Below, in pieces: positions 32,623-57,863 of a stretch of DNA of 64,000 nucleotides. The DNA is from Marinobacter sp. S6332 (GTDB lineage Bacteria > Pseudomonadota > Gammaproteobacteria > Pseudomonadales > Oleiphilaceae), in the NCBI RefSeq assembly GCF_023016045.1, contig NZ_JALKAP010000009.1:62001-126000 (forward strand), given 5' to 3'. Within the stretch, counting starts at the first letter, position 1. The number at the start of each line of letters is the position of its first letter. The notes beneath the pieces are model-generated. The model saw only the letters and a list, made by a program, of their open reading frames with translations. It was not told the DNA's origin and searched no databases. The position numbers and the translations under genes are program-made.

Positions 32623-32638
32623 TGGTACCCCCGGCAGG
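32623..32638 (+). repeat. attL: left copy of a 16-bp direct repeat
   Basis: TGGTACCCCCGGCAGG is identical to the 3' end of the tRNA-Arg(CCT) gene at 57787-57802 and in the same orientation. Bases on either side differ. It marks the left edge of the island. Confidence 0.85.
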
Positions 32639-38316: not shown

Positions 38317-38448
38317 TGGTAAATCACCTGTCTCTAGAAAGTTGAAATCGAGTGCAGCTGATGCGAGGCAAACCCTGCGGCTTTTGGGGCAGAGCCTGGT
38401 TCCCTCGCTGACACCCCGCCCCATCACCGCAGTCAGATACGTAACCAT

Positions 38449-39503: not shown

Positions 39504-39757
39504 AGGAATTGTCTCCCTGATGAAAGTGCGTGCGGCTGTTTTCTCAGTTAACACTAGATAGTAAAGCACGGCCGTCAGGAACACGCATCAAAGCTGACTC
39601 TCCTGGTTCGCCCGGCACAAGGATTATCCGCGTCTATTGGAAAACTTCATCAGTTCAAGCAATATTGAGGGGCCGACCAACGTTTGCAGGCTAACTATTG
39701 TTCGGCAAAATTTTGGCGCAGTTGCTTAATAGATGGTTCAGCGCTTCAGGAGGTCAA

Positions 39758-40240
39758 ATGATCGAGCTCGTGGAATCATGGATTGATGAGTTAAACGAGG
39801 CGTACAAGCCTTATCGCCAATCCTGCTCAGTTTTTCAGCATCAGTTTGACGGCTTCTATGGCCCGGAGCTGCTCCGCTCATCCTATTTCGTGGTCGTGAA
39901 GGCTCTCCCCATGCCAAAGATGCCGGAGCTCAGAGAAGCAGGGTTGGGTGACTTCCTGGATAATGGTGATCAGCTCGGCGGCATCACCTACAAAAACACT
40001 TACTACCTTGTACCAAATGGGGCAAAGGACCTTGGCATCCACTTTCACGAACTAGTCCACGTGATTCAGTGGCGCAGTTTGGGCCCCCGACGGTTTATCC
40101 AAAGATATATCAACGAAATGCAAAAATTCGGATACAGCGAAAAGGCACCACTTGAGAGCATGGCTTACGGTCTACAGGAAAGATTCGAGAATGCATTCAG
40201 GCCCTTCGATGTGGAGAAAGAGGTAGTCGCGACCCTCTGA
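39758..40240 (+). CDS. Predicted zinc metallopeptidase (HExxH)
   Basis: The 160-aa product has HFHELVHVIQW, a gluzincin-type zinc motif (H-E-x-x-H), with a candidate downstream Glu in KAPLESMAYGLQERFE. A perfect AGGAGG sits six bases before the ATG at 39758; the longer TTG start at 39698 is not needed. There is no signal peptide, so it is cytoplasmic. It is first in a co-directional block with the 406-aa, PLD, helicase, methylase and Res genes. Its role in defence, if any, is unknown. Confidence 0.7.
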   Translation: MIELVESWIDELNEAYKPYRQSCSVFQHQFDGFYGPELLRSSYFVVVKALPMPKMPELREAGLGDFLDNGDQLGGITYKNTYYLVPNGAKDLGIHFHELVHVIQWRSLGPRRFIQRYINEMQKFGYSEKAPLESMAYGLQERFENAFRPFDVEKEVVATL

Positions 40241-40287
40241 CGAAAAGCGGGGGTTCCAGAATAATAAACAGATGGATCTGAAACGAT

Positions 40288-41508
40288 ATGCCTTTCCTTT
40301 CACTCCTTGATGACCGAGCCAAACCCAAAGGATCGCGAGACCCGCTTGGCTTCGAATTAGTGTGGACCCATTTCGGCCGAAAAGTAGTTGGCAACCTGAC
40401 CACCATCACCAGTTCCGTCGAAAACTTTACCGTTGCGTTGCTCGGTTTCTATTGGGCACACCAGATTCATGGGAATGCCGACAAAGACAGTCGCGAGCGG
40501 CTAATTAGGGAGACGTTCCTCCGCTACGAGCAGCTTGCCGCCTACCTCCGGCACCAGTCCGGTAGCAAAGAAATCATGGGTATTACCCGCGTCCACAAAA
40601 ATATGACTGCTCAGGCGGAGTCGTTAGCTATTAGCTTGAAAGCGCAGATTCTGAGCAATCAGGCAAGCTATGGATTGTGGGGCCTGTACAGTTCGGCCCT
40701 GAAAGATTCCGGGCTTGCGGAAGGGAGCGATCGAAAGCTGACAGCTGAAGGGATGGAGCTTGCTGAGACAATCGCGAGGGATCTGAACTCCAATGAATTC
40801 ATTCAGCTGTTCAGAGTCGACGGTCAGCTTTCCAGAGATGAATGCGAACGCTTGGCCCCCCAATTTTGGCAGGCAATTCGTAAGGAGGTTGTCCGACAAA
40901 AACTCACTCATGTACTACTTCGTGGGCACCAGAATCAGAATGCCTCGGTACAAGAGGGTCTTTTCGCCGCGACCGAGAAGCTCGTGAGAGCGGGCAAGCT
41001 AACCGGTGAGTTTTCCCAGAATTTGAATCACGTTCAAAACGCCGGGTCGCCTGATTTGCAGAAGTGTCTGGACGAAATCCAGCGAGTAGAGCGTGTGCTG
41101 GTCGCTGCTAACAACGTTTTCTATTACCTGCTCACACAGGATCATCAACCGGTCTCTTCAGTTGTGGAGCAGATTGAAAGCCAGACTTATGACTATGAGC
41201 ACCTACCAGAGACTTTGCCCCAAGGGATGACGCGACGGAACGCGCTTTGTGAGATCAACGACAATCTGAGAGCTGGCAACCATTGGGGAGCAGTGAAAGC
41301 CGTCACTAAGTTAAATGCGGACGTGATGAAAGCGAGGGGTGGTGCTCCCTGGGTAACCTGTGACGGCGACATTCTCAACGTCAAAGTGAAGTCAGAAACG
41401 GCCGTTCTTCGGTCTAGGCAGGCTCTCCTGGAGGACTGGGATTACGATTACTTCCTGGGCTCCTATTTTCGCATTGCCAAAGCGAATCTGGAGGAGCGTA
41501 ATGGATAA
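40288..41508 (+). CDS. Hypothetical protein of the defence block
   Basis: The 406-aa soluble protein is mostly helical (QAESLAISLKAQILSNQ, ATEKLVRAGKLTGEF, EINDNLRAGNHWGAVKAV). An RDPLGFELVWTHFGRKV start is followed by an alpha-rich body. I recognise no catalytic motif. It overlaps the PLD gene by 8 bp, which strongly links the two. It could be an adaptor or sensor subunit. Confidence 0.7.
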   Translation: MPFLSLLDDRAKPKGSRDPLGFELVWTHFGRKVVGNLTTITSSVENFTVALLGFYWAHQIHGNADKDSRERLIRETFLRYEQLAAYLRHQSGSKEIMGITRVHKNMTAQAESLAISLKAQILSNQASYGLWGLYSSALKDSGLAEGSDRKLTAEGMELAETIARDLNSNEFIQLFRVDGQLSRDECERLAPQFWQAIRKEVVRQKLTHVLLRGHQNQNASVQEGLFAATEKLVRAGKLTGEFSQNLNHVQNAGSPDLQKCLDEIQRVERVLVAANNVFYYLLTQDHQPVSSVVEQIESQTYDYEHLPETLPQGMTRRNALCEINDNLRAGNHWGAVKAVTKLNADVMKARGGAPWVTCDGDILNVKVKSETAVLRSRQALLEDWDYDYFLGSYFRIAKANLEERNG

Positions 41509-43537
41509 TGCGCAGATATCCCAATACCTTGAAGAACGCCTGGGAGGGCGCCCGGTTAAAGCCGCTGTCTTTACCAGTTACACCTTCGATCCCGCATTTT
41601 TTGAGCTGGAAGTTGTTCCTCTTCTGTTATCAGAAAACAGCTCTTTCTCGATCGATGAGCGGGTGAAACAGTTCCAGGTGCGAGAATCCCTCAGGGAAGC
41701 CGAACTGCCGATTGATGTCTTTTACGATCAGAACATTTTCCGTATTCAGGGTGAAAGCTCACCTGGAATGGAATACGGCTGCCACGGTGTTTCTGAAGGA
41801 AATCGTGCTTTCCACCCGAAGCTATCGTTTCTGCTTGTAGGTAACGGCGCTGGGGAAAGTGACTCCTTACTGATATCCGCCGGTTCTAATAACCTCACTA
41901 AGGCTGGTTGGTGGGATAACATTGAATGCCAGCACTGGGAGGAGATTGGCCAACGCGGTGGTGACGGCGAGTTTCTGCGAGTACTGAAACGCGATCTGGA
42001 CTACCTGCAAAAGAAGCGGATAGTCCAGTCGGAGAATAGTGCTGTTTTTGAAATTCAGAGATTTTTGGCTAAGTGCGTAGCAGATCCTGCAGCACCACCA
42101 ACCCTCTACTTCGGATTATCCAGTACAACGCGGTTTCTGGATTTTCTATCGGCAGAGACCAGCCAGCTTAAAAAGCCCGTTGAACTGGAGATTATCTCGC
42201 CATTTTTCGCCGACGACTCCAGGAATAATCTGCATGAGGCATTTCAAGATTTGGGCGTAAGTAATGTGCGCCTAATGTTGCCGCGCGATGACAAGCAAGA
42301 AGCGCTCTGTAACCTCGATTATTTAGCTCACATTGATAGTTTGGAGAACGTCTCCTGGTCTGATTGGGTGAAAACAACATCGGACCCATTGGGAGTAGGG
42401 AAAGAGCCTCATAGGGAACTGCACGCCAAGATTTTCAATCTCATTGGCGCTGATCGGGCTCTAACCTTTGTTGGGTCAGTGAATTTCACGTACAAAGCGC
42501 TCAATGAGAATGTCGAAGCCGGTTTTCTAGTAGCTACAGATCCGGAGTCGTTGTTGAAAACTATCTCCGAAGATCTGCCGGAAGTTAGCCAAAGATCTCT
42601 CGACCTGGCACCCGGCGAAGTGGACCACGAAGCTCAGGGCAGCATGCCCCAGATTTCCCTCACGTTTGATTGGCTGACCAAAACCCTGAGCGGGAGAGTG
42701 GAATCTGAAAGCCAGATCGAAATTGATCTAATCGGCCCGGACGGGGTAGATAGCACGGCAGTGAAGGGCTGGCGTCTCGGCAACTGTTTGAGCGACTACA
42801 CTGGCGACACTGAAGCTTTGGAGAAGGCGCTAGCCAACGGCTCCCTGATCCTAGTTTCTGGGCGAGTTTGTGATTCCGATGAATTAGTCGCCCCGCACCG
42901 TGTTTTACTTCAGCAAACGCACTGGTCGCATAAACCGCAACCCGATCTCGCCACACTGTCTCCTCAGCAGATCCTGGCGATCTATGCCGGAATGTCTCCG
43001 GAACGCCGTCAGCTGCTGCTGACGGACGCACGGGTTAAACGGCTTTTCGAACTGGGCGAGCGAGGGGAGACCAGCCTGATCGAAGAGGCGCCTATGGAGA
43101 ACGAGTTCTTTTCCGAGTATGCCGAACTGTTCCACGCATTTCGCATGCTGAGGCGAGACCTCAGCAACGAGCAATCCACACCGAAAAAGCAGGATTACTA
43201 TCTCACCGGTACCGGCGTGGATAGCTTACCAACATTAGTTGGCCGAGCTGCGGCTGTACTCGAACCCACTGAGGAGAGTGATCAGCCGTTGCATCCTGTC
43301 AGTGCGTATCTTTTATTGCTCAGTGCCAAGGAAGTCTATCGATCAGCCGAATTTGCAGATCGGCCTCATGTCGCAGAGCAATTGGAGTTTATTGAAACGC
43401 TTCTTCAGCAAATACGTGAGAGCAAATTAATCAAGCTATCCAGTGAACGCGAAGCCGATCGAGACAACTTTTTCGATTGGTTTGAGGCTCAATTCCTGGA
43501 GCAGTACCGGATCGAAAGAGCGGTGGGTAGCGCATGA
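41501..43537 (+). CDS. Phospholipase D-like domain protein
   Basis: The 678-aa product has two HxK motifs in the first half: H105-P-K107 (FHPKLSF, with SAGSNNL at about 126-132) and H308-A-K310 (LHAKIFN, with VGSVNFT at 324-330). Two HKD-like half-sites suggest a complete phosphodiesterase active site within one chain. The C-terminal half (about 380-678) is unassigned. PLD proteins partner helicases in defence systems such as DISARM (DrmC), but this one is far longer. The ATG follows GAGGAG and overlaps its neighbours on both sides. Confidence 0.82.
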   Translation: MDNAQISQYLEERLGGRPVKAAVFTSYTFDPAFFELEVVPLLLSENSSFSIDERVKQFQVRESLREAELPIDVFYDQNIFRIQGESSPGMEYGCHGVSEGNRAFHPKLSFLLVGNGAGESDSLLISAGSNNLTKAGWWDNIECQHWEEIGQRGGDGEFLRVLKRDLDYLQKKRIVQSENSAVFEIQRFLAKCVADPAAPPTLYFGLSSTTRFLDFLSAETSQLKKPVELEIISPFFADDSRNNLHEAFQDLGVSNVRLMLPRDDKQEALCNLDYLAHIDSLENVSWSDWVKTTSDPLGVGKEPHRELHAKIFNLIGADRALTFVGSVNFTYKALNENVEAGFLVATDPESLLKTISEDLPEVSQRSLDLAPGEVDHEAQGSMPQISLTFDWLTKTLSGRVESESQIEIDLIGPDGVDSTAVKGWRLGNCLSDYTGDTEALEKALANGSLILVSGRVCDSDELVAPHRVLLQQTHWSHKPQPDLATLSPQQILAIYAGMSPERRQLLLTDARVKRLFELGERGETSLIEEAPMENEFFSEYAELFHAFRMLRRDLSNEQSTPKKQDYYLTGTGVDSLPTLVGRAAAVLEPTEESDQPLHPVSAYLLLLSAKEVYRSAEFADRPHVAEQLEFIETLLQQIRESKLIKLSSEREADRDNFFDWFEAQFLEQYRIERAVGSA

Positions 43538-46500
43538 AACCTTACCCTATTCTCGACCTGGACTCTGCACGCCATATTCTTGATTTCAGTGGTGGTAGGG
43601 ATGAGCTCAAATCGCTCGGCGAGGTACAGCTCCGTGGCGCGGTTGCCCTCTACAATATGATCAACACCGAGAGTATTGGGTTAGGTTATCTCGCTGATGA
43701 AGTAGGAATGGGAAAAACCTACATAGCGCTGGGAGTCGTTGCGCTGATGAGGTATTTCAATCCAGCTCTGCGGGTTCTCTATATATGCCCGAGTGCCAAT
43801 GTTCAGGATAAATGGCTACGTGAGCACGCCAGTTTTATTGACCGAAACGTCTGTACCGCCAGCTATCGTGTGCGGACTCCAGAGGGTAAGCCTGCTGCCC
43901 CAGTAACTAAATGCGATAGCCTGGAAGACCTTATCCGCACAGCAGCCTCCGGCTTCTATGCTGAATTTTTCGTTCGCAATGGGAGTTTTAGCTTTGGCTT
44001 GAAAAAAGCCTCTGATGACCATGATGAGGAAGCGATCAGGAGCTGGAACGAGCAGCGTAAAAAACTGCAGAAGATGTTACCGGCATTTTCGGTCCCAAGT
44101 GGCGACCCCACTCATCGTGGAGTAAAAGACGAGTTCGCTCTGGCATTAAATTACGTGCTGCCGACCTTTGATCTGGTGTGTATCGACGAGAGCCACAACT
44201 TCAAACACAACTTCGAGAGCAGTGACCGAAACCGTGTCCTTTCTCAGGTATTGGGGTTCTATCAAAGCGGAAGCGCTGATGACAGGCCCTATCAGCGTCG
44301 TGTACGTAATGCTCTGCTACTCTCAGCTACACCTTATGATCGCAATCTCGAACAGCTAAGAAACCAGCTTGCTTTGGTAGGGAAAGAAGATTTACTGAGT
44401 CGCGCCCAGTCCGTAACGGACAAGGAAGAGATCGCCAAATTTATGGTGCGTCGCCTCAACCGGCTGAGAATAGGCAATCGGGAATACACTCGTAATATGT
44501 ATCGTACAGAGCTGCGCGATGGTCCAAAGGCTGCGATTGAACTGGAAACGGATGAGCAAAAGCTGGTCACGGCCCTGGTTCAAAAGAAAGTTGGCGATGC
44601 ACTTGGTCACAAGCATGGCTCTCCGTCCTTCCAGATGGGGATGCTCGCATCTTTTGAGAGCTATGGTGAAACCACTCGGTCGCCCCGAGTGGAGTTCGAT
44701 AGCGAAGACCCAGATGACAGAGGGCGTGATGCACAGGACCGGAACGTAGTTGGCGCTATTGTCGACAGCTATGTAAATGCAAACCTCGGTCGGTCACTGC
44801 CACACCCCAAAATGGATACGGTTGCAAAGCAGCTGGCCAATGCAGTGTTTCAGGAGAACCGTAAGCAGCTTGTATTTGTGCGCAGGGTAAAAAGTGTCAA
44901 AGAGCTGAAGCAGAAACTTGATGAATGCTATGACGATTGGCTGATCAATTACCTGAACTTCCGCCTGCAAGGTCGCACAAAAGCACTAAGGCCTATGCAA
45001 GGTGTGATCGGCGAATACCGTGATATCAGCCGATTCAGGGACGAACGCATAGATGAAGGCCTCGCAGAGGAAGGCAAGGCTGGAGAGGCCGAACTCCGGC
45101 AACCACCCAAAAACGACAATCTCTTCAACTGGTTCTTTCGAGGCGATGCACCAAAGCCTCAAAAACAGAAGAATTGGGGAGATCTTTTAACTCCGGATCA
45201 GGTAAGGCAAAGCCTGTCCCAATCCACGCGCCTTGCTAGCCCGCTGTTAGAAGTGAATTGGGCACAGCTCATTTGCTTTTTCAGCGGCGTGGACCTACGC
45301 CAAACTATCGAGCAATGCCTGACCGCAGCAACCGAAACGTCCCTTGCTGAACTTGGAAAGGTTCAGCCGCAGGAGTACCTCCGGAAATTCAGGCTGTCGC
45401 AATTGGTCTTTCTGGATGCCTGGGTCAACCAGCTCGGCCACAGTGCTTATAAGCCACTTCTCGATCATTTGCAGGCTTCTCTCAGCGAGCAGAAATTGCA
45501 GGAAGACGGAGCCATCATCACCCGGCAGGACGTTCGAGAGCAGCTCCGCTTACCAACATTGTTTTCTGAACTGGAAGCCAGTGATGAGATAAGGGGGCAA
45601 ATCCTGCCAAGTTTAGGAAAGCTGCTTAGTCAGCTGACTGAAACGCCCGATTGCACTAACCCTGATGACATACAAGTGCTGCTGAGAACAGTGGATATAC
45701 ACGCGGCAATTGTATCGACATTGCTACGCACGGGGCACGGCATGATTGATCTGTACGTGTCGCGTCTGAGGCAGGGAGAGGGAGATCTCAGTAGTGGCGT
45801 TCTCGCTGGCTGGATTACTGATTTTGTCGCAGAGCTGTCTCGACAATCCCAGGCTCCAGGGTTTTCCACCTATCTTGAGTTAAAAGGGCTGGCGGATGAG
45901 CTGCCGGCAATATTGAAAGCTAACCTTCCAGGCATTTTTGACTTGGGTACCAATGAATATCGTCGCTATCTGAGTAACCAGCTAAACCCGATCGCTCCGA
46001 TTATTGGTGCCACAGGCGATACAAATGCGCCGGGACAACGCTCAGCCCAAGCCCGCAAATTTCGTATGCCGGGGTATCCATTGGTACTGGTAAGCACGAA
46101 CGTGTTCCAGGAGGGCGAAGACCTGCATCTGTTCTGTGACAGCGTTGTCCACTACGGCGTTTCGGGCTCGCCAGTGAGCATCGAGCAGAAGAACGGCCGA
46201 GTGGACCGTGTTGGCTCACTGGCACAGCGGCGGCTCACTCGTGAAGGCTTAAGTGATCCGGAAGAGGATGACTTAATACAGGTGAGCTTCCCCCACGTGA
46301 AGGAAAGCATTGAGCGGGTTCAGATTCGCCGACTCTCGGAAAACATCAATCGCTACATGGCCTCACTCCATGAGATCGGAAACTCCGTCGCTTCAGACAG
46401 GGAGGAGATCGCCGAATCCGAAATCGCCGATCGCACCCGAATAGAGCCCCAGATAAGAGATTTCCTAGAAAGTCCTTTTGATCCCGCAGATCCAAGATCG

Positions 46501-47427
46501 GATCTGGAACACTTGAGTTCACTTAAGCAGCAGATAAGGGAAACTCAGGAGCAAGTGCTGGCAAACGTCAGTCAAGCGAAGCAGCTGATTGCCTCGGCGC
46601 TCGGTGTTAGTGAGGGCGTTCGTTGGCCACTGAGCGTTAACCTGAAGGTCAGCGACCTGGTTGGACAGGTATCGGATATAGCTGAAGTCCGGCTGACGAC
46701 AGCCAGAGCCTCTGGAGAAATCCTTGCCCGAGTCGTGGTCGATCACCAGGACGGTCGTGGAACTCAAGTCCAGATAGGATCCCACGCTGAACTGGCGACG
46801 TTGATGCACCAGCAGTCCTGGACCACGCTCCATAGAACCTTTGCCTTTCAAACCGCCAAGAATGTTTGGCGACTGGCCTACGATGCGGAAATGCTGGTAG
46901 GGGATGAGAACGTAACGGTTGAGAGGGATATGGCGGCGCTACTTGATCGGTTTCATGAAAAACACGATCCGCAGGAATACCGCTCCCCAGGCTCTGTCGT
47001 CTTTCGACATCTGGAACGACTTCGGCAAGAACAAGAAGTTCAAGTAGGTCAACAGACCCTGAAGGTCGATGTGATCGATTCAGGGGCGACTGTCGGTTTC
47101 CGGTTTTGGTTCAAAGAGGGAGAGCTGCGTCGATCTCAAACAGTTTTCCTGTCGGAGTCCGACGGGCAGTGTGTATTTATCAGTCCTGCCGTGCCCTCAA
47201 ACGTCGCTAGCGCAATGCTTGTTGAGAAAATTGTAGAGTTAACCTGGGAACGGAATCGATATACCGATGTGGTTGAGTTCATGCTTAATGACGAACAGGA
47301 GATCGTTGGCCGCTGCGTGCATCCGATTGATAGCCTGCATTGGCGAGAGTTCGTCTACTGCGCTCACGTGCTGGCGGTGGAGAGTGACCGGCTGGAATAC
47401 CTGATCTGTGAGGAAGACCAGTTTTGA
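43534..47427 (+). CDS. Large SNF2/DEAD-type helicase
   Basis: The 1297-aa SF2 protein has Walker A (ADEVGMGKT, 54-62), the DExH box (CIDESHNF, D218), motif III (LLLSATPYDRN) and a C-terminal helicase lobe ending in motif VI (EQKNGRVDRVGS, near 890). A 300-residue insertion between the lobes (about 500-800) is typical of DrmD/SNF2-related defence helicases. The C-terminal 350 residues are unassigned. It starts with ATGA overlapping the PLD stop. It may move along phage DNA and present it to the PLD partner. Confidence 0.85.
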   Translation: MKPYPILDLDSARHILDFSGGRDELKSLGEVQLRGAVALYNMINTESIGLGYLADEVGMGKTYIALGVVALMRYFNPALRVLYICPSANVQDKWLREHASFIDRNVCTASYRVRTPEGKPAAPVTKCDSLEDLIRTAASGFYAEFFVRNGSFSFGLKKASDDHDEEAIRSWNEQRKKLQKMLPAFSVPSGDPTHRGVKDEFALALNYVLPTFDLVCIDESHNFKHNFESSDRNRVLSQVLGFYQSGSADDRPYQRRVRNALLLSATPYDRNLEQLRNQLALVGKEDLLSRAQSVTDKEEIAKFMVRRLNRLRIGNREYTRNMYRTELRDGPKAAIELETDEQKLVTALVQKKVGDALGHKHGSPSFQMGMLASFESYGETTRSPRVEFDSEDPDDRGRDAQDRNVVGAIVDSYVNANLGRSLPHPKMDTVAKQLANAVFQENRKQLVFVRRVKSVKELKQKLDECYDDWLINYLNFRLQGRTKALRPMQGVIGEYRDISRFRDERIDEGLAEEGKAGEAELRQPPKNDNLFNWFFRGDAPKPQKQKNWGDLLTPDQVRQSLSQSTRLASPLLEVNWAQLICFFSGVDLRQTIEQCLTAATETSLAELGKVQPQEYLRKFRLSQLVFLDAWVNQLGHSAYKPLLDHLQASLSEQKLQEDGAIITRQDVREQLRLPTLFSELEASDEIRGQILPSLGKLLSQLTETPDCTNPDDIQVLLRTVDIHAAIVSTLLRTGHGMIDLYVSRLRQGEGDLSSGVLAGWITDFVAELSRQSQAPGFSTYLELKGLADELPAILKANLPGIFDLGTNEYRRYLSNQLNPIAPIIGATGDTNAPGQRSAQARKFRMPGYPLVLVSTNVFQEGEDLHLFCDSVVHYGVSGSPVSIEQKNGRVDRVGSLAQRRLTREGLSDPEEDDLIQVSFPHVKESIERVQIRRLSENINRYMASLHEIGNSVASDREEIAESEIADRTRIEPQIRDFLESPFDPADPRSDLEHLSSLKQQIRETQEQVLANVSQAKQLIASALGVSEGVRWPLSVNLKVSDLVGQVSDIAEVRLTTARASGEILARVVVDHQDGRGTQVQIGSHAELATLMHQQSWTTLHRTFAFQTAKNVWRLAYDAEMLVGDENVTVERDMAALLDRFHEKHDPQEYRSPGSVVFRHLERLRQEQEVQVGQQTLKVDVIDSGATVGFRFWFKEGELRRSQTVFLSESDGQCVFISPAVPSNVASAMLVEKIVELTWERNRYTDVVEFMLNDEQEIVGRCVHPIDSLHWREFVYCAHVLAVESDRLEYLICEEDQF

Positions 47428-47642
47428 TCCTTGTCTCTGAAACGCAAACAAAATGCTAAATAGCACTCCGATGACGAGAACTAGATGAGATAAGCAACTG
47501 ATATTTATGTCTCTTTCTGCTACTTTTAGCGACTGACAATATTAGAGAGCGTGGCCGAAGCTTGAGCCAATCAACCTGGCCACTTGGCAGCCCTGTCGCA
47601 ACGATAGGGCGGATGGAACCCAGTATTCGCAGCGAGTATTCC

Positions 47643-50600
47643 ATGAACACCAATATCGAGCAGATCAAGTCCCTGTTGCTTTCCTTGCTACCCAAGGATG
47701 GATCAACCGTTGGCAACATGAGCCTCAAAGACCAGATTCGCAACGACCATCAACTTGCTATCAGCGACGAGGATTTTGATGCGGCTCGAAACCAGCTCCT
47801 CGATGAGGGGGGCATTGGGAAAGGGCGTGGACGCGGTGGTGCAACCTATCTAAGCCAGCCTGCGGCAGGCGAGCAAGCTATGCATGATGGTTTTGAGCTG
47901 CAAGCCCAGCAAGCGCCTTCACAGGAAGATCTCGTCTATTCCAGTCAGAAGCCAGCCTCTCCGAAAGCGCCTCGCCAGCTGGGAAAGAAAAAGGGAGAGC
48001 ACAGTCAGGTGTTGTCGTACCGATACGACGAGAAACGGAAGAACAACCCGCATGTGGGCATGGTGGATACCCATTCTGACGGTGAGGAGCAAAAAACGAC
48101 CTGGCAGTATGATCCGCACCTCGCGCCGGAGCTGCAATTCGATTCAACCAGGTCGCAAGTCGAAGACCTGATTGAGGATGCGCTTCACGCCCGAGAGGTC
48201 GAAGCAAAACAGGCGAAAGATGACCTGTTAATGTGGCTGGATCATGCCCTGGCCGCTGACAATGAGTCTGCTATCCGAGAAGTGGTAACCAATCTTCGCA
48301 AGAGAGTAGCTGATAAGGAATTTCTGGAGCGGGAGCGAGGCGATCTGTCTGAGCTTAAGCGTATGCAGGCTCCCTACCTTAATTGGACTGGAAAAGCTGA
48401 GCGCACCAGTTTTGACGTGGATACCGTTTCGCTTCATGTGCATGAGCGGATTGATCCGGCAACCATTTTGGCGGCAGTTCAGAAGCGAATTAAAGATGCA
48501 AAGGGAAAGTCCTCCCCAGCTCTTCAGCCTGACTTGTTTCATGCTCCGTTCGAGAACTTACCGCTGAGGGACGCAATAGATTTTTACAAACATGAGCGGG
48601 ACTGGGCCAACCGCATGATTGCGGGGGATTCTCTCCTCGTTATGAACTCGCTTCTCCAAAAAGAAGGGATGTCGGGCCAAGTACAAATGATCTTTCTCGA
48701 TCCACCATATGGAATCAAGTATGGATCTAACTTTCAACCATTTGTGAATAAAAAGGATGTTAAAGACCGGCGTGATGAGGATCTTACTCAGGAACCCGAA
48801 ATGATAAAGGCCTTTAGAGATACTTGGGAATTGGGTATCCATTCGTACCTGGCTTATCTTAGAGACCGATTGTTACTTTGTCAGGAATTGCTCCATGAGT
48901 CTGGTAGTATTTTTGTGCAAATTTCAGATGAAAATGAGCATTACATTAGAATGCTTATGGAAGAAGTTTTTGGAAAGGAATGCTTTGTCGCAATAGTGCC
49001 TTTTAGAAAAAAGCTAATGCCTTTAGGGGCTAAGACGCTGGAGCAAATGTCTGATTTTCTCATCTGGTTCTGCAAGGACTTTAGTAAACTAAAGTATCGT
49101 CACCTTTATAGAGAAACTCAGCCAGATTCAAAAGGACGCTGGACAGGGTTGATTGATGAAAATAAGAACCTCAGACGTTTGTCCAAGGATGATAGGGCTG
49201 CTCTGAAGAAAGGTATTGCTCCGGACAATATCTTCGGAACTATATCCCAGTGGGCGCCATCCTTCTCACCGGAAGGTGTTTTTGATTATGAGTTTCAGGG
49301 TCATAATTTTCAGCCATCATCGGGTCAGTGTTGGGTTTCGTCTAAGCCTAAAATGAATAGGTTGAATTATGCGAATCGCCTCTTTGTAGAAAAAGACAGT
49401 CCAAGGTTCGTGAGTCCCCATAGTGATTTTCCGTATGCCAAGATAACAAGCCCTTGGCACGATACTGCGCCTGCATCAGACAAAAGCTACGTAGTTCAGA
49501 CCAATGAAAATGTTATCGAGCGCTGCATGGCTATGACTACTGATCCCGGGGACTTAATTTTGGACCCCACATGTGGATCTGGAACAACTGCATTAGTGTC
49601 AGAAAAGTTGGGCCGCAGGTGGATTACGTGTGATACATCCCGAATAGCAATAGCTTTGGCTAAGCAGAGACTTGTGACAGCAAGCTTTGACTATTACGAG
49701 CTTAAGTATCCTCAGGAAGGGCTTAACGGTGGTTTCGTCTATAAGACAGCTCCTCACATAACTGCAAAATCGATTGCCAATAATCCGGAGATCGATGAAA
49801 TATATAATAGTTTTCATCCGTCAATAAAATCTGCTTTAGAAAAGCTGAATAATGAATTGCGAAATTACGGATGCCAATTTCATGTGAAGGTTGGTGCGAG
49901 AAGCGGAAGTGAAATTAAATTTCGCAAAGGCAGCGGAGAAAAAATAACGCTACCTTCAGGGGAAGCTGTTTTCAACAATGAGTTGACCGAATGGGAAGTC
50001 CCACCATCATTCCCAGATGATTGGCCTTCAGTCATTGAACCCGCTTTCGAGCATTTTCAGGCCCTGCGGCGTGAAATGCACGAGCGCATGGATTCTTCAA
50101 TTCAAAATCATGCAATTCAAGAGGTGCTTTACGATCAGCCTTTTGTTAGTAAAAACAAGCTGAGGATAACGGGGCCTTTTACTGTTGAGGCTGTACCTTT
50201 CGCTACAGTTCTGGGATTGGAGGAGTTTCAGAAGCCTGCCGAAGCCGACATAACTGTAGCTAGAGCCGGAGCGACATCTCGGCATAGCCAATGGCGAGAG
50301 GAACTTCTGAAGGTTGGTATTCGAGGAAAGGGGGGGCAACATCTTAAATTGCTGGACTTAGAGACACTGCCTGATTCGCGTTATTTACACGCGGTTGGAA
50401 CATTGGCAGAAAGCGGGGATCGAGTCGCAATCAGCTTCGGACCTGAGCATACCGCGTTGGAACAACGACAGGTCGAGATTGCGAAGAGTGATGCTGGAGA
50501 TCTTTTCCCACTCCCCAAAATGCTTGTGTTTTGTGCTTTCAATTTTGACCCCGAAGCGGCTAAGGATATCGATAACATAAAAGGTATTCAGGCGCTCAAA

Positions 50601-51050
50601 GTGCACATGAATACAGACTTGCTTACTGAAGACCTGAAAAAAGGACGGTCGAGCAACCAGTCTTTCTGGCTCATGGGGCAGCCAGATATCGAGGTGCATG
50701 AACTCAAGGGCGGCAAACTGCAGGTCGAGGTTCATGGCTTCGACTATTTCGACACCAAAACCGGTGAGCTGAAATCTGGCGGCAAGAAGAATATCGCCAT
50801 GTGGCAGCTTGATACGGATTACGACAACCGTTCACTATATGCCCGTCAGGTTTTCTTCCCCATGGCTGGCAAGAAGGATGGTTGGTACAAGCTCAAGAAA
50901 GATATTCGTGCCGAACTCAATGAAGACCTGTTGGACAAGTTCCACGGGACGAAATCTATACCCTTTGAACCAGGTGACAATCGCTGTATTGCCGTCAAGA
51001 TTGTCGACGATCGAGGTATCGAGTCACTGAAAGTCATCAGGCTGGATTGA
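47643..51050 (+). CDS. Type III-like (Mod) adenine DNA methyltransferase
   Basis: The 1135-aa beta-class N6-adenine methylase has motif IV DPPYG (353-357) before motif I DPTCGSGTT (641-649). The region between would include the target-recognition domain. An N-terminal winged helix (about 1-70) and a long C-terminal domain make it much longer than ordinary Mod. Roughly 48.6-50.2 kb is visibly AT-rich relative to its ends. I chose the ATG at 47643 over an upstream TTG. It sits 10 bp before the Res gene. Confidence 0.85.
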   Translation: MNTNIEQIKSLLLSLLPKDGSTVGNMSLKDQIRNDHQLAISDEDFDAARNQLLDEGGIGKGRGRGGATYLSQPAAGEQAMHDGFELQAQQAPSQEDLVYSSQKPASPKAPRQLGKKKGEHSQVLSYRYDEKRKNNPHVGMVDTHSDGEEQKTTWQYDPHLAPELQFDSTRSQVEDLIEDALHAREVEAKQAKDDLLMWLDHALAADNESAIREVVTNLRKRVADKEFLERERGDLSELKRMQAPYLNWTGKAERTSFDVDTVSLHVHERIDPATILAAVQKRIKDAKGKSSPALQPDLFHAPFENLPLRDAIDFYKHERDWANRMIAGDSLLVMNSLLQKEGMSGQVQMIFLDPPYGIKYGSNFQPFVNKKDVKDRRDEDLTQEPEMIKAFRDTWELGIHSYLAYLRDRLLLCQELLHESGSIFVQISDENEHYIRMLMEEVFGKECFVAIVPFRKKLMPLGAKTLEQMSDFLIWFCKDFSKLKYRHLYRETQPDSKGRWTGLIDENKNLRRLSKDDRAALKKGIAPDNIFGTISQWAPSFSPEGVFDYEFQGHNFQPSSGQCWVSSKPKMNRLNYANRLFVEKDSPRFVSPHSDFPYAKITSPWHDTAPASDKSYVVQTNENVIERCMAMTTDPGDLILDPTCGSGTTALVSEKLGRRWITCDTSRIAIALAKQRLVTASFDYYELKYPQEGLNGGFVYKTAPHITAKSIANNPEIDEIYNSFHPSIKSALEKLNNELRNYGCQFHVKVGARSGSEIKFRKGSGEKITLPSGEAVFNNELTEWEVPPSFPDDWPSVIEPAFEHFQALRREMHERMDSSIQNHAIQEVLYDQPFVSKNKLRITGPFTVEAVPFATVLGLEEFQKPAEADITVARAGATSRHSQWREELLKVGIRGKGGQHLKLLDLETLPDSRYLHAVGTLAESGDRVAISFGPEHTALEQRQVEIAKSDAGDLFPLPKMLVFCAFNFDPEAAKDIDNIKGIQALKVHMNTDLLTEDLKKGRSSNQSFWLMGQPDIEVHELKGGKLQVEVHGFDYFDTKTGELKSGGKKNIAMWQLDTDYDNRSLYARQVFFPMAGKKDGWYKLKKDIRAELNEDLLDKFHGTKSIPFEPGDNRCIAVKIVDDRGIESLKVIRLD

Positions 51051-51060
51051 GGAGGGGATC

Positions 51061-53922
51061 ATGGCTGATAAACCGAATTCCCTGGTGATCAATTCACCTT
51101 ATGACAAGCCCAACCAATACTGGTCTCAGGACGACAATGGCCGGGTTGCTGGGGTAGTTGATGGGCGAAGACCTGCCGCCTACGAGCTTTACGACCCTCG
51201 TAACAACACCAGACGGGTAGAGGAACTGGAAACGGTCAACCGGATCCGCCAGCGCGTTGATGAGTGGCGCGATGCCGGTTGGCCAGGCGTAACTAGCGTA
51301 TCCCGAGAGTTGCTCAACCACTGGTATTCCAGAGGTGAGTGGGATCCCGACTCAAAACGCTGGAACGGTGGTCCGAGACCATACCCGTTTTACTATTGTC
51401 AGCTTGAAGCCATCGAGTCCTTGATCTGGTGGTTGGAGGCTCCGGAGGAATTCCGACAAGGTATCTTTTTCCAAGGTGATGGCGGTCCGTGGGAGCGTAT
51501 CTGCAACAAGATGGCTACCGGGTCTGGTAAAACTTCCTTGATGGCGCTGATTATCACCTGGCAAACCCTCAACGCAATCACCTATCCGAAAGACAAGCGG
51601 TACTCCAAAGCCGTTTTCGTGGTGGCCCCTGGTCTGACGGTGAAAAGCCGACTTCAGGTTCTGCACCCAGGCAATGAAAACAACGTTTACGACGAGTTTG
51701 TCTTATGCCCTAACGAAGCAATGCGTCAAAAGCTGAACCAGGTAGCGTTGGTGATAGAGAACTGGCATAGCCTCATGCCGTTGAAGGAACAAACTCGCTC
51801 TGTAGTGAAAAAGGGCAAGGAAAGCGATGAAGCTTTCACCCGTCGGGTACTTGGCAAGCTGGCTTCCTTTAAAGACATCCTGGTCATCAACGATGAAGCC
51901 CATCACGCATACCGCCAGAAAGCTGAAGTGAAGGTCAGTAAGAAAGAAGCGGAGGAAATGGGGATCGATCTGGAGGAAGCGACTCGATGGATTGAGGGGC
52001 TGGATCGCATTCATAAAACCCGCCGCATTCGTCGCTGCTTCGATGTGACGGCGACGCCGTTTTCTCCGACCGGCAAAAAGAACACTGAGAAAGGGCTCTT
52101 TGAGTGGATCATCTCGGACTTTGGGTTGAACGATGCGATTGAGGCGGGGTTGGTCAAAACGCCTCGAATCGTGGTTCGGGATGATGCATTGCCTGATGCG
52201 AAGACCTATGCTAGCAAGCTTTACCACATTTATCGCGATGACGGTGTCAAGCAGGACTTGGCCAGGAGAGCTCAGCCCACCGATCCACTTCCGGATCTGG
52301 TCCAGAAAGCCTATGCGATCCTTGCCTATGACTGGCGGGAGACGGCAAAGAGCTGGGAAGAAAATGGCCATACCATCCCGCCCGTACTGCTTACTGTCTG
52401 TAACAGGACGGAAACTGCTTCCCGTATCGAACATTTTTTCAACAGCGGTGATTGCCTGATTTCTGGCACCCAGAACCCAAAGGCCACCTTACGCGTGGAT
52501 TCAAAGGTTCTGGAAAAAGCAGAGCGTGGTGAGAGCATCACGAAGGATAAAGATTACGTTGCTCGGCTTGAGGAAATTATAGAGGCATCCGGTTTGCCCG
52601 CTGATAAGAAAGAGGCCCTGCTGAAGGAGAAACAAGAGGTTCAGCTACGAGCATTGGTCGATACAGTAGGTAAGCGTGGTAAGCCGGGACAGAATCTTCA
52701 GAACGTGGTTTCGGTAGCCATGCTTTCAGAAGGCTGGGATGCAGCTAACGTAACTCACATCATGGGCCTAAGAGCATTCAGCAGCCAGCTGCTTTGTGAG
52801 CAGGTGATTGGTCGTGGTCTACGCCGTGTCGCTCACGACATGGACGAGAGTGGTAAGTTTATTCCTGAGTATGTAAATGTGTTCGGCGTGCCGCTTTCGA
52901 TATTTCAGGAGGTCGGTGAGGGTGGCGAAACACCTCCGCCACCGAAACCGAGTGTGCGTGTTGAAGTGGAGCCAGGCAGAAACCACTTCGAAATACGCTG
53001 GCCAAATATTGACCGCGTTCAGACCGTTCTGAAACCTGAACTGAAGATGGATTGGAGCGCAGTGGAGCCTTTAACCCTGGATCCTGCTCAGACACCGCTC
53101 AACGCCGAGATTGCCCCTGCGTTGACTGGTATTCCAAATCTTGCGCAGGTTTCTCAGATCGACCTTGAGAAGGCAGTAGAAGACTTCCGCTTGCAACACC
53201 TGATCTTTCGGGCCGCACGAAAGCTTTTCCTGACTAGTAGCGACGGTTTTGAAGGAGATAAGCAGTATCTGGCGGTGCAGCTGATTCGAATTGTTGAGCA
53301 ATTCCTGGAGTCAGACAAACTCGATATCCCAAGCCTCTGGCACCAGGACCCGGTGCGTCGCAGATTGTTGTTTGCTCTGAACATGGACAACGTGGTTACC
53401 CATGTAAACCGCTTCGTGAGCAAGCAGAACGTCGAGCGCCTGGAGGCATTGTTTGACGAGCACCAACCGATTGGCGCGACCTCACAAATGCGTCCATGGC
53501 TGACTACCAAACCCTGCCGGCCGACCGAGCGTTCACAGATCAGCCATGTAGTGTATGACAGTACCTGGGAAAAACCGGTAGCGGACATCTGTGAGAAGGA
53601 TGAGTCGATTCAAACTTGGGCTAAAAATGACCATCTTGGCTTTAAAGTTCGATATCTCTGGAATGGCTCGTCCCGTAACTTTGTGCCCGACTATCTGATT
53701 CGACTTAAGAACGGACAGACTCTGGTTCTTGAAGTAAAGGGCCAGGATTCAGAGCAGAACCGGGCCAAGCGTGCAGCGATGGATACATGGATCAAGGCGG
53801 TTAACGAGCAGGGAGGGTTCGGTTCCTGGTGCTTTGATACCGTGTTCGATCCTAGCCAGATTCGGGATGTTATTGGTGCGCATGCGAGAAAGGGGGCGAA
53901 AAGTATTATGGCATCTAAGTAG
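51061..53922 (+). CDS. Type III-like restriction helicase-nuclease (Res, BPTD_3080-like)
   Basis: The 953-aa SF2 protein has Walker A (MATGSGKT, 151-158), the DEAH box (NDEAHH, 278-281), TATPF and motif VI (QVIGRGLRR). A C-terminal PD-(D/E)xK nuclease follows: D877 (FVPDYL), E891 and K893 (LEVKG). It matches what I remember of the BPTD_3080-type Res proteins that partner large Mod methylases. It would translocate from unmethylated sites and cut. It immediately follows mod. Confidence 0.85.
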   Translation: MADKPNSLVINSPYDKPNQYWSQDDNGRVAGVVDGRRPAAYELYDPRNNTRRVEELETVNRIRQRVDEWRDAGWPGVTSVSRELLNHWYSRGEWDPDSKRWNGGPRPYPFYYCQLEAIESLIWWLEAPEEFRQGIFFQGDGGPWERICNKMATGSGKTSLMALIITWQTLNAITYPKDKRYSKAVFVVAPGLTVKSRLQVLHPGNENNVYDEFVLCPNEAMRQKLNQVALVIENWHSLMPLKEQTRSVVKKGKESDEAFTRRVLGKLASFKDILVINDEAHHAYRQKAEVKVSKKEAEEMGIDLEEATRWIEGLDRIHKTRRIRRCFDVTATPFSPTGKKNTEKGLFEWIISDFGLNDAIEAGLVKTPRIVVRDDALPDAKTYASKLYHIYRDDGVKQDLARRAQPTDPLPDLVQKAYAILAYDWRETAKSWEENGHTIPPVLLTVCNRTETASRIEHFFNSGDCLISGTQNPKATLRVDSKVLEKAERGESITKDKDYVARLEEIIEASGLPADKKEALLKEKQEVQLRALVDTVGKRGKPGQNLQNVVSVAMLSEGWDAANVTHIMGLRAFSSQLLCEQVIGRGLRRVAHDMDESGKFIPEYVNVFGVPLSIFQEVGEGGETPPPPKPSVRVEVEPGRNHFEIRWPNIDRVQTVLKPELKMDWSAVEPLTLDPAQTPLNAEIAPALTGIPNLAQVSQIDLEKAVEDFRLQHLIFRAARKLFLTSSDGFEGDKQYLAVQLIRIVEQFLESDKLDIPSLWHQDPVRRRLLFALNMDNVVTHVNRFVSKQNVERLEALFDEHQPIGATSQMRPWLTTKPCRPTERSQISHVVYDSTWEKPVADICEKDESIQTWAKNDHLGFKVRYLWNGSSRNFVPDYLIRLKNGQTLVLEVKGQDSEQNRAKRAAMDTWIKAVNEQGGFGSWCFDTVFDPSQIRDVIGAHARKGAKSIMASK

Positions 53923-53950
53923 ATGGAAACGGGCACTCAATTTTGCCTGT

Positions 53951-55924
53951 ATGAAAATAACAAAGGATAAGGAATCTTGTGTTGTGGCTGTAGTCTATCC
54001 TGATTTTGAAAATATCCAAAGATTGAAAGTTAAGCCGACTGATGGGGAATTAGCGCTCGTTAGTTTTTTAAAAGATAACCTAGACGATACTTATGAAGTG
54101 TTTTTTAACCCCTACCTAGATGGGGATCGTCCAGATGTAATTATCCTTAAAAAGGGTGTTGCTGTCTTTGTTGTAGAGATTAAGGATTGGGATCTTGATT
54201 CTTACAGTATCGATAAAAGTAACTCTTGGAAAGTTTTTGATGGAAAAAAATACAATAGGATAGGATCTCCGCATGCGCAAGCATTTAGGTACAAGAAAAA
54301 CTTATATGATTTGCACATTCCCGTGGTTGGGCTCGCTTCTTTGAGGAATAAGAATTTTTTCAATCTAGTTGATTGTTTTGTATATTTTCATAAATCTAAA
54401 AATATTGATGTTGACCTGATTTACGATAAGGCGGAATCGGAAATAAACGAAGAAAAAGATATAAAAAACAGAGAGTTTTTAGAAAAAATAATAAGCTTTG
54501 AAGTTTATAGCAAGTCAAGAGATTTTCTCGATAGAAAGTCAAAGCAAATAAAGAGGGATAGGTTTATTTCTATAGGGTGTGACCAGTTGGAATCCCTCAT
54601 CAAAAAGATAAAAAGTAAATCAACACATGTTCTTTTTGATGACGATGTCTACTTTGACTTTAAGAGAAGGCTTGCTCCGCCCAAGCACACCCTGAGTCAG
54701 GGTTTGAAAATAGATTTTGATAAAAATCAATATCCAATTACTCTTAGTGGACCTAGGATGGAGAAGGTTAAGGGCGTCGCAGGTTGTGGGAAAACAACTG
54801 TTATGGCTCAACGAGCGATAAATGCAGCTGAGCGGCATATTTCACCAGTGCTTCTTCTAACCTTTAATATAACTCTCAAAAATTACATAAAGGATAAAAT
54901 AAGCGATTTAAAGGGGTGTCGGGATTTTGAATTTCTTGAAATTACAAACTACCATCAGTTCTTTAATTCTCAGATAAACAACACTGGCCAAGATATGGCG
55001 ATGTTAATTGATGAGCATGGTTTAGCTGGTTTGTATTCTCAGGATGTTTTTTCGGGACTTTTAACCATTAAATATAAAACTATTGTCCTGGATGAGGTTC
55101 AGGACTACATGCCCGAGTGGGTTAAAATTATCAGGGACAATTTTCTGGAAGAAGACGGCGAAATGGTTCTTTTTGGGGATGAGGCCCAAGACATATATCA
55201 TCGCCACTCTGACCGGGCTCGGGTTATTGCTCAGGGTTTTGGGAAATGGATTAAGTTGAATAGATCATACAGAATTGATTCCAATTCACCCCTGAATAGT
55301 TTGTTTAGAGATTTTCAATCTAAATTTTTAATAGAAAAATACGCTGACTCTGAGTTATACGACTCTGAAATGTCTCAAGTTGGGTTAAGTTACGGCCTTT
55401 TGAAATACGTTCCCATATCTAAGGAAGGTTGGTACGATGACGTGTTTGAGTCGGTTCAAAACTATATGTCTGAATATGATCTACACCCAAATGATGTTGT
55501 AATTTTGAGCTCCCATGTCCACGTCATTCGAGATCTTAATGATTACTGGGAGCGGCGTGAAAGAACGCATTGTATGTTTGAGGACTATGAAGAGCTTGAG
55601 TCAGCTGTAGATGTTCCGAAACAAAGGTTGAAGTCTATGGCAGAGTCTGATTTGGAAAAAATTATAAACGATAACAAGTCTAAAATTGAGCGGATAAGGC
55701 GTGTTAAGAAAAACTTTTTTTATTCTAACAGTGGTCTTATAAAGTTTTCTACTATTCATAGCTTTAAAGGACTGGAGTCGAAAGCTGTTTTTTACGTTAT
55801 GTTGAAAGATGATGATCCGGAGGTTGTTTATACTTCGATAACTCGTTCCGCAGAAGATCTAGTTGTTTATGATGTTGGAAGAATGAATGCTTGTTCTGAT
55901 TTCTTAGAGAAGGCTATGCTGTAA
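53951..55924 (+). CDS. NERD-domain nuclease fused to a UvrD-like helicase
   Basis: The 657-aa product has an N-terminal NERD nuclease-like domain (D62, E76, K78 in DVIIL..VVEIKDW). An SF1 helicase follows: Walker A GVAGCGKT (275-282), DEVQDY and a C-terminal VYTSITRSAEDLVVYD. It starts 28 bp after the Res stop; in-frame upstream codons overlap Res in another frame and are not used. The gene is strikingly AT-rich, unlike its neighbours, so it may have joined the cluster separately. NERD-helicase proteins recur in defence islands. Confidence 0.82.
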   Translation: MKITKDKESCVVAVVYPDFENIQRLKVKPTDGELALVSFLKDNLDDTYEVFFNPYLDGDRPDVIILKKGVAVFVVEIKDWDLDSYSIDKSNSWKVFDGKKYNRIGSPHAQAFRYKKNLYDLHIPVVGLASLRNKNFFNLVDCFVYFHKSKNIDVDLIYDKAESEINEEKDIKNREFLEKIISFEVYSKSRDFLDRKSKQIKRDRFISIGCDQLESLIKKIKSKSTHVLFDDDVYFDFKRRLAPPKHTLSQGLKIDFDKNQYPITLSGPRMEKVKGVAGCGKTTVMAQRAINAAERHISPVLLLTFNITLKNYIKDKISDLKGCRDFEFLEITNYHQFFNSQINNTGQDMAMLIDEHGLAGLYSQDVFSGLLTIKYKTIVLDEVQDYMPEWVKIIRDNFLEEDGEMVLFGDEAQDIYHRHSDRARVIAQGFGKWIKLNRSYRIDSNSPLNSLFRDFQSKFLIEKYADSELYDSEMSQVGLSYGLLKYVPISKEGWYDDVFESVQNYMSEYDLHPNDVVILSSHVHVIRDLNDYWERRERTHCMFEDYEELESAVDVPKQRLKSMAESDLEKIINDNKSKIERIRRVKKNFFYSNSGLIKFSTIHSFKGLESKAVFYVMLKDDDPEVVYTSITRSAEDLVVYDVGRMNACSDFLEKAML

Positions 55925-57786: not shown

Positions 57787-57802
57787 TGGTACCCCCGGCA
57801 GG
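57787..57802 (+). repeat. attR: right copy of a 16-bp direct repeat
   Basis: TGGTACCCCCGGCAGG here is the 3' end of the tRNA-Arg gene (acceptor stem, discriminator and CCA) and matches attL at 32623-32638. Confidence 0.85.
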
Positions 57803-57863
57803 ACTCGAACCTGCTACCTTCCCCTTAGGAGGGGGACGCTCTATCCAGATGAGCTACGGAGGC
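57787..57863 (-). tRNA. tRNA-Arg (anticodon CCT)
   Basis: The 77-nt minus-strand gene folds as a cloverleaf: acceptor GCCTCCG / CGGGGGT (two G-U pairs), anticodon loop CTCCTAA with anticodon CCT, T-arm GCAGG / CCTGC with TTCGAGT, and an encoded CCA. It is the island target; its 3' end serves as attR. Confidence 0.95.

What the first reader, a model, noticed from the sequence alone, without database searches (positions are those of the whole stretch)
39758..55924. Composite seven-gene defence block: HExxH peptidase, unknown, PLD, SNF2 helicase, Mod, Res, NERD-helicase
Seven co-directional genes sit in one tRNA-borne island, four of them overlapping or nearly so. The Mod/Res pair is a type III-like core, but a long PLD protein and a 1297-aa helicase precede it, reminiscent of DISARM (DrmC/DrmD) without DUF1998 proteins. 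I do not recall this gene set, with the peptidase and the 406-aa protein, as a named system.
Basis: partly seen in the sequence, partly recalled or inferred. Interest (0 to 1): 0.75.

Follow-up and report, generated by a model that had tools for sequence, protein, structure and literature searches.

The report
Three-gene defence module beside restriction genes
A mobile DNA island in a marine bacterium carries what looks like one seven-gene defence system, but comparison with other genomes shows a three-gene core that travels on its own, probably to find and cut foreign DNA, with separate restriction and helicase genes placed next to it.

Summary
The seven co-directional genes are real and lie in a 25.2-kb element bounded by a 16-bp repeat of the tRNA-Arg 3' end. 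They are not one system. The 406-aa protein (A), the PLD protein and the helicase form a core: A was found at 33 loci in an 84,980-species collection, and 30 of them hold A-PLD-helicase in that order, in at least seven phyla. The peptidase joins the core only in Marinobacter (2 of 33). Window/Marinobacter DNA identity stops at the helicase stop codon; beyond it lie Mod/Res (window), type I genes (HL-58), or a SNF2 helicase and a different Res/Mod pair (M. daqiaonensis).

The core is a clade without a name that I could find, sister to PADLOC candidate PDC-M27. It is not DISARM (no DUF1998) and only partly resembles Zac.

Most likely mechanism (inferred): A binds DNA (predicted winged helix, weak evidence), the SNF2/RapA-like helicase translocates, and the PLD protein, with two intact BfiI-type half-sites, cuts DNA. 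Mod/Res and NERD-UvrD look like separate cassettes. Restriction genes and UvrD helicases recur beside such cores, so cooperation is possible but unproven. No activity was tested.

The parts
32623..32638 (+). attL: 16-bp direct repeat of the tRNA-Arg 3' end
32820..34175 (+). tyrosine integrase of the element
   Evidence: Phage_integrase, Phage_int_M and Arm-DNA-bind_3
39758..40240 (+). HExxH (HELVH) putative metallopeptidase, 160 aa; accessory, linked to the core only in Marinobacter
   Evidence: no Pfam match
40288..41508 (+). core gene A, 406 aa; relative of PDC-M27A; predicted winged-helix DNA-binding protein
   Evidence: PDC-M27A 5.5e-15; hhalign 98.8% over 388 columns; model pLDDT 88.9; folds
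41501..43537 (+). core gene PLD, 678 aa (or 687 aa from TTG 41474); two HxK..N..E half-sites
   Evidence: PLDc_2; ZacB 5e-22, PDC-M27B 4.2e-13; BfiI 1.9e-5; invariant catalytic columns in 29 rows
43534..47427 (+). core gene HEL, 1297 aa, SNF2/RapA-like SF2 translocase
   Evidence: PDC-M27C 1e-71; Helicase_C, ResIII; invariant DEVGMGKT, DExH, SATP and GRVDR residues
47562..51050 (+). Mod: type III-like N6/N4 adenine MTase (start 47562 or 47643); separate cassette
   Evidence: N6_N4_Mtase 6.1e-29; MTase_III PDLC03632 2.7e-145; 51-54% homologues beside Res on plasmids without the core
51061..53922 (+). Res: BPTD_3080-family restriction endonuclease, partner of Mod
   Evidence: NF046055 1156 bits, cut-off 800; Mod near Res in 15 of 18 fetched Res loci
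53951..55924 (+). NERD nuclease-UvrD helicase, about 657 aa; probably a separate, A+T-rich cassette
   Evidence: C3a187 NERD+UvrD 1.6e-45; NERD 1.3e-10; 36.4% G+C
57787..57802 (+). attR within the 3' end of tRNA-Arg(CCT) 57787-57863 (minus strand)

Best explanation
The block is a stack of cassettes in a tRNA-Arg integrative element. Its conserved unit is a three-gene DNA-targeting defence module, A-PLD-HEL, probably made as a translationally coupled unit. A is the DNA-binding or sensing subunit (winged helix), HEL is an ATP-driven dsDNA translocase, and PLD is a BfiI-like nuclease whose two half-sites form one active site in a single chain and should cut DNA without divalent metal. The module would recognise some feature of incoming DNA, translocate and cut. 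Shown: gene order, recurrence, cassette boundary, intact catalytic motifs. Inferred: defence function, complex formation, DNA binding by A, order of events. Mod/Res is a self-standing type III-like restriction-modification pair, and NERD-UvrD and the peptidase are accessory genes.
For: A-PLD-HEL in order on one strand in 30 of 33 loci (the contig ends before HEL in L045 and L065; L068 lacks it), in at least seven phyla. Window/L042 and window/L043 DNA homology both run 39729-47428, i.e. to the HEL stop at 47427. Different neighbours to the right of HEL: HsdM/HsdS in HL-58, SNF2 helicase-Res-Mod-Dsr1 in M. daqiaonensis. BfiI is the only PDB sequence matched by the PLD profile at E<=0.1 (1.9e-5); H105/K107/N131/E142 and H308/K310/N328/E339 are invariant in 29 rows, and the second half-site has BfiI's H105/K107/N125/E136 spacing exactly (that these are BfiI's catalytic residues is recalled). 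A's N-terminal domain aligns to DtxR/MntR-type winged-helix repressors in the first 15 of 36 rows (Z 8.0-5.8, 92-97 residues), with MarR-type proteins lower; for the whole A model PaqCI leads (Z 6.0, rmsd 6.7, 201 aligned) and FokI is fifth (Z 4.3, rmsd 15.7). Mod is found near Res in 15 of 18 Res loci, none with A/PLD/HEL.
Against: No phage or DNA-cleavage test exists. Foldseek found no significant fold match for A (0 at E<=0.001), and Z of 8 or below can be a mere common arrangement. A may act through contacts other than DNA. The full HEL was not folded. Mod/Res or related restriction genes do lie near several cores, which is compatible with cooperation.
Confidence: 0.6

Rival explanations
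1. One composite system: Mod methylates the host, and A-PLD-HEL plus Res are alternative effectors acting on unmethylated DNA, a DISARM-like or expanded type III system.
For: All genes are co-directional and close together. Zac modules, which have the same layout, are directly followed by a homologous Mod-Res pair in Shinella and Agrobacterium F2 and by Res and Mod in genome G985. Two of the 33 core loci have a homologous Res/Mod pair near by (L050; L043).
Against: None of the other 30 complete cores has Mod/Res directly behind HEL. DNA homology ends at the HEL stop. Mod-Res pairs are mostly found without such cores. The 134-215 nt gap before Mod contrasts with the overlaps inside the core. 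Defence genes cluster in islands anyway.
Confidence: 0.15
2. The core works with a UvrD-family helicase-nuclease (AddAB-like pair or NERD-UvrD) that finishes degradation of the cut DNA.
For: AddA-like UvrD-nucleases lie near 6 of 33 cores (L044, L046, L047, L048, L055, L066), other UvrD-type helicases are directly upstream in L050 and L057, and AddAB-like pairs lie upstream of 4 of 9 Zac loci examined.
Against: At least as many loci lack it as have it; 0 of 7 PDC-M27 loci have an AddAB-like match. In the window the NERD-UvrD gene is beyond Mod/Res and differs in G+C.
Confidence: 0.15
3. The core is not anti-phage but controls plasmids or other mobile DNA, or transfer of the element itself.
For: It sits in an integrative element, and relatives lie on plasmids.
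Against: Neighbours are typical defence genes; presence is sporadic (1 of 398 genomes with A by direct search).
Confidence: 0.1

Closest known systems
PDC-M27 (PADLOC-DB candidate, genes A, B, C)
   Same: Same three functions in the same order; A is a full-length homologue by profile comparison; HEL trees place the two as sister clades (support 93). Seen in Rhodoferax and Vibrio plasmids and in G066, G587, G598, G599, G620.
   Different: Very diverged (HEL about 25-29% local identity, A about 20-25%); PADLOC profile matches are partial (M27A positions 298-448 of 460); this clade is separate (25 rows, support 97).
Zac (PADLOC-DB ZacA/ZacB/ZacC; ZacA is annotated DUF6361)
   Same: Layout of a ~400-aa protein, PLD protein, SNF2-type helicase; PLD matches ZacB (5e-22) and HEL matches ZacC (1.5e-30).
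   Different: A is not detectably related to ZacA (hhalign probability 0.3); Zac helicases fall outside the clade joining this one and PDC-M27.
DISARM (DrmC, DrmD)
   Same: A PLD protein plus a SNF2-like helicase near a methyltransferase.
   Different: No DrmB/DUF1998 in the genome; PLD scores 37.8 bits against DrmC cut-off 133 and HEL 72.5 against DrmD cut-off 610.
BfiI (PLD-superfamily restriction endonuclease, PDB 2c1l)
   Same: HxK..N..E half-site with the same spacing.
   Different: Two half-sites in one longer chain and separate helicase and A partners; BfiI as a homodimer with its own recognition domain is recalled, not from a call.
Type III-like Mod/Res with BPTD_3080-family Res
   Same: Window Mod and Res belong here.
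   Different: Not part of the core; pair found independently of it.

Membership tests
PDC-M27 | homologues of A, B and C adjacent in that order | tested here: met
   PADLOC matches are partial and weak for A and B
PDC-M27 | helicase falls inside the M27C clade | tested here: not met
   separate sister clade (quick tree, SH-aLRT only, long-branch warnings)
PDC-M27 | passes PADLOC's own system rules and coverage cut-offs | not testable with these tools
   only the profiles, not the PADLOC program, were available
Zac | ZacB- and ZacC-type PLD and helicase | tested here: met
   5e-22 and 1.5e-30, local matches
Zac | ZacA (DUF6361) subunit | tested here: not met
   A against one ZacA sequence, probability 0.3; the ZacA profile search of the genome found nothing, but its controls found nothing either
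DISARM | DrmB / DUF1998 (MZB) protein | tested here: not met
   0 matches in the whole genome, control positive in 8 of 14 genomes
DISARM | PLD and helicase over the DrmC and DrmD cut-offs | tested here: not met
   37.8 of 133 bits; 72.5 of 610 bits
Type III-like restriction-modification (Mod/Res) | Mod methyltransferase beside a Res helicase-nuclease | tested here: met
   Res domains ResIII over cut-off, RE_endonuc under cut-off (0.031)
Type III-like restriction-modification (Mod/Res) | Mod-dependent, ATP-dependent cleavage of unmethylated sites | not testable with these tools
   no assay
Winged-helix DNA-binding proteins | winged-helix fold in A residues about 40-200 | tested here: inconclusive
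   MntR/DtxR-type rows lead at Z 8.0-5.8, but Foldseek gives nothing at E<=0.001
BfiI-type PLD nucleases | conserved HxK..N..E catalytic residues | tested here: met
   two half-sites invariant in 29 rows; profile match to 2c1l
Integrative element in a tRNA gene | integrase and direct repeats of the tRNA 3' end | tested here: met

The most novel reading that the evidence does not exclude
A-PLD-HEL modules (this clade and, separately, Zac) are exchangeable DNA-cutting add-ons that dock beside restriction-modification systems of any type and use the neighbour's methylation mark for self/non-self discrimination, with a UvrD-type helicase-nuclease to finish degradation. The window, Shinella/Agrobacterium F2 and Wenzhouxiangella would be three separate assemblies of the same four functions. 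Counts behind it: adenine MTase genes near 6 of 33 cores (L042, L043, L050, L051, L069, L074), a homologous Res/Mod pair near 2 of 33, UvrD-type helicases near at least 8 of 33. General clustering of defence genes is not excluded as the cause, and no clustering control was run.
Probability: 0.15. Interest if true: 0.75.

Novelty: new variant of a known kind. Interest (0 to 1): 0.5.

Why it matters
It turns a list of seven odd genes into a testable three-gene unit with a specific chemistry: a wide-ranging, uncatalogued sister clade of a PADLOC candidate for which I found no paper. If right, bacteria build BfiI-like metal-independent nucleases into translocase-driven defence complexes. The cassette boundary at the HEL stop, with three different right-hand neighbours in Marinobacter, also gives a natural experiment on whether such modules need restriction-modification partners.

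Tried and rejected
Rejected: (1) one seven-gene system; (2) DISARM, and the cut-offs; (3) Zac membership; (4) peptidase as core: its family is found in 11 of 389 other genomes of the order (one hit broken by stops), and of these only G480 had the core, on another contig; the one plasmid hit (49% identity) is beside arsenic-resistance genes.

Led nowhere: plasmid search with A, no match; viral-contig scans with HEL and A, no relative; direct A search found only the window in 398 genomes of the phylum; Foldseek with A, its N-terminal domain, and against viral proteins, nothing at E<=0.001; PDB sequence searches with the HEL profile (nothing at 1e-5) and the A profile (best 0.69). The promoter and terminator scans were no more frequent than in shuffles. 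Families not listed by VIA-align are not thereby excluded. Paper searches: PDC-M27 0, BPTD_3080 0, DUF6361 0; ZacA/B/C gave 504 papers, the 20 listed being unrelated; the two broader searches listed 11 and 4 papers, of which I looked only at passages of PMC12839542, PMC12458937 and PMC9142583, none of which described this gene set. The library holds open-licence papers only.

Rows left out before counts: HEL tree 24 of 30 HEL-bearing loci (six split or truncated left out); A alignment 27 of 33; PLD alignment 28 of 32; neighbour scan 107 of 126 listed proteins; Res neighbourhoods fetched for 18 of the places listed, of which L120 and L121 showed no Mod and L117 could not be judged because my ORF caller hid Res. 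Several of the 33 contigs are short, so neighbour counts are lower bounds, and many loci are from metagenome-assembled genomes.
Full report
Observation. The seven genes are present on the + strand at the stated coordinates. Better starts are likely for PLD (ATG 41501) and NERD-UvrD (ATG 53951) and possible for Mod (47643). A 16-bp repeat at 32623-32638 and 57787-57802, the second being the 3' end of tRNA-Arg(CCT), bounds a 25.2-kb element with its own integrase. The same repeat occurs in Marinobacter sp. HL-58 at the left of its island (L042:2726) and at a tRNA-Arg(CCT) on its right (L139), so HL-58 has an island at the corresponding site.

What the proteins are. PADLOC profiles match A to PDC-M27A (5.5e-15), PLD to ZacB (5e-22) and PDC-M27B (4.2e-13), HEL to PDC-M27C (1e-71) and ZacC (1.5e-30), Mod to MTase_III (2.7e-145) and the last gene to NERD+UvrD (1.6e-45); the peptidase matched nothing. 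Res is a BPTD_3080-family endonuclease over the NCBIfam cut-off (1156 against 800 bits).

Recurrence. The HEL protein matched 11 of 390 genomes of the order at E<=1e-12, the window's own included. In the neighbourhoods of G590, G434, G480, G514, G750 and G627, A, PLD and HEL homologues lie in the same order, with no peptidase, Mod or Res match (in G514 HEL is spread over two contigs). G587, G598, G599 and G620 carry PDC-M27-type modules instead. A scan of the 84,980-species collection with an alignment of A found 33 loci. By tblastn, A-PLD-HEL is in order on one strand in 30 of 33; L045 and L065 end before HEL, and L068 lacks it though its contig goes on. By record title the 30 include Pseudomonadota, Desulfuromonas, Planctomycetes, Blastocatellia, Verrucomicrobia, Eisenbacteria and Bacteroidetes, and one Parcubacteria-group record. 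Five of the six named G loci are the same contigs as some of the 33; G480 is an additional case.

Boundaries. The peptidase is beside A in 2 of 33 loci, both Marinobacter, and intact in both. Window DNA matches L042 and L043 (86-87%) over 39729-47428, ending at the HEL stop. To the right of HEL, HL-58 has HsdM and HsdS, and M. daqiaonensis has a 569-aa protein, a SNF2-type helicase, Res, Mod and Dsr1; that Res/Mod pair is only 30% and 34% identical to the window's and in the opposite order. So the Marinobacter cassette is peptidase-A-PLD-HEL, and the conserved core is A-PLD-HEL.

Mod/Res. BPTD_3080-type Res is in 28 of 369 genomes of the class at E<=1e-50, 23 over the cut-off. In 18 fetched neighbourhoods Mod was seen in 15, A/PLD/HEL in none and Zac in one (L106). 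On plasmids it occurs without such modules in Sphingobium, Rhizorhabdus, Agrobacterium pusense and Planktothrix and directly behind ZacABC in Shinella and Agrobacterium F2. Against a clean separation: L050 (Wenzhouxiangella) has Res, NYN, Mod, an AAA ATPase, an IetS-like protease and a UvrD helicase directly upstream of A, all on the + strand, and L043 has Res/Mod about 5 kb beyond HEL.

Other neighbours. AddA-like UvrD-nucleases lie near 6 of 33 cores and 4 of 9 Zac loci, and 0 of 7 PDC-M27 loci. UvrD-type (GajB-profile) helicases are the most frequent PADLOC-matching neighbours in the first set (6 of 68); in the second, SNF2/DrmD-type and UvrD-type each match 2 of 39. A motif scan plus profiles found adenine MTases near 6 of 33 cores and a type IV enzyme near L060. 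No control for general island clustering was run.

Relation to named systems. A HEL tree gives this clade (25 rows, support 97), PDC-M27 (7 rows, 100) and Zac (8 rows, 100) as separate groups, with this clade and PDC-M27 together at 93; it was a quick tree with warnings on long branches. A and M27A are full-length homologues (98.8%); A and ZacA are not detectably related. DISARM is excluded by absence of DUF1998 and by scores far under the DrmC and DrmD cut-offs. PMC9142583 (passages only) describes DrmA and DrmB as the DISARM core and DrmC as dispensable.

Mechanism. The PLD profile matches one PDB sequence, the restriction endonuclease 2c1l (BfiI by recall; 1.9e-5). Both half-sites, H105/K107/N131/E142 and H308/K310/N328/E339, are invariant in 29 sequences; the second has the spacing of H105/K107/N125/E136 in 2c1l. 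That these are the catalytic residues of BfiI, and that BfiI cuts without metal, is recalled. The A model is confident (pLDDT 88.9). Its N-terminal domain, folded alone (pLDDT 85.5), aligns best to MntR/DtxR-type winged-helix repressors (Z 8.0-5.8), and the whole model to PaqCI (Z 6.0), Hel308 (5.6), ORC2 (5.1), DarTG (5.0) and FokI (4.3); Foldseek alone gives nothing significant, so this is a weak hint. HEL has intact ATPase and helicase motifs. The inferred mechanism is recognition by A, translocation by HEL and cutting by PLD.

Verdict. What is new is a wide-ranging clade of a three-gene module, a variant of a catalogued candidate, with a concrete mechanism to test.

Noticed in passing
L010 1-17406; L130 5840-24019: Shinella WSD5-1 and Agrobacterium F2 plasmids carry a PD-(D/E)XK/UvrD pair, ZacABC, Mod and Res in one co-directional run, a parallel to the window's set of functions.
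   Followed up: partly
L128 6510-20134: Haliscomenobacter plasmid: ZacABC lies between the methyltransferase/specificity genes and the R gene of a type I restriction system (annotation).
   Followed up: no
L046, L048, L056, L058-L060, L062, L064, L069, L073: The last 94-233 residues of HEL are a separate small ORF behind the main helicase gene in these loci; gene split or sequencing error not resolved.
   Followed up: no
L123 1332-3668; L124 1287-3626: A multiubiquitin / ThiF-type adenylyltransferase / DUF6527 gene set sits upstream of the UvrD pair and Zac genes in Agrobacterium fabrum and Mesorhizobium plasmids.
   Followed up: no
window 36941-38646: A minus-strand pair (439-aa Integrase_1-like protein, just under cut-off, and 128-aa protein) lies in stretches conserved in both Marinobacter relatives.
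   Followed up: no
window 34998-36251: 417-aa protein without PADLOC, Pfam or NCBIfam match, 92% identical in Marinobacter HL-58.
   Followed up: no
L008 6770-25951: Sphingobium plasmid: Mod/Res follows a RecB-like nuclease, an exonuclease and an AAA ATPase and precedes a DUF3320 protein (annotation).
   Followed up: no
L036 3986-11036: A genome of the window's own genus (G599) carries a PDC-M27-type module instead of this one.
   Followed up: no
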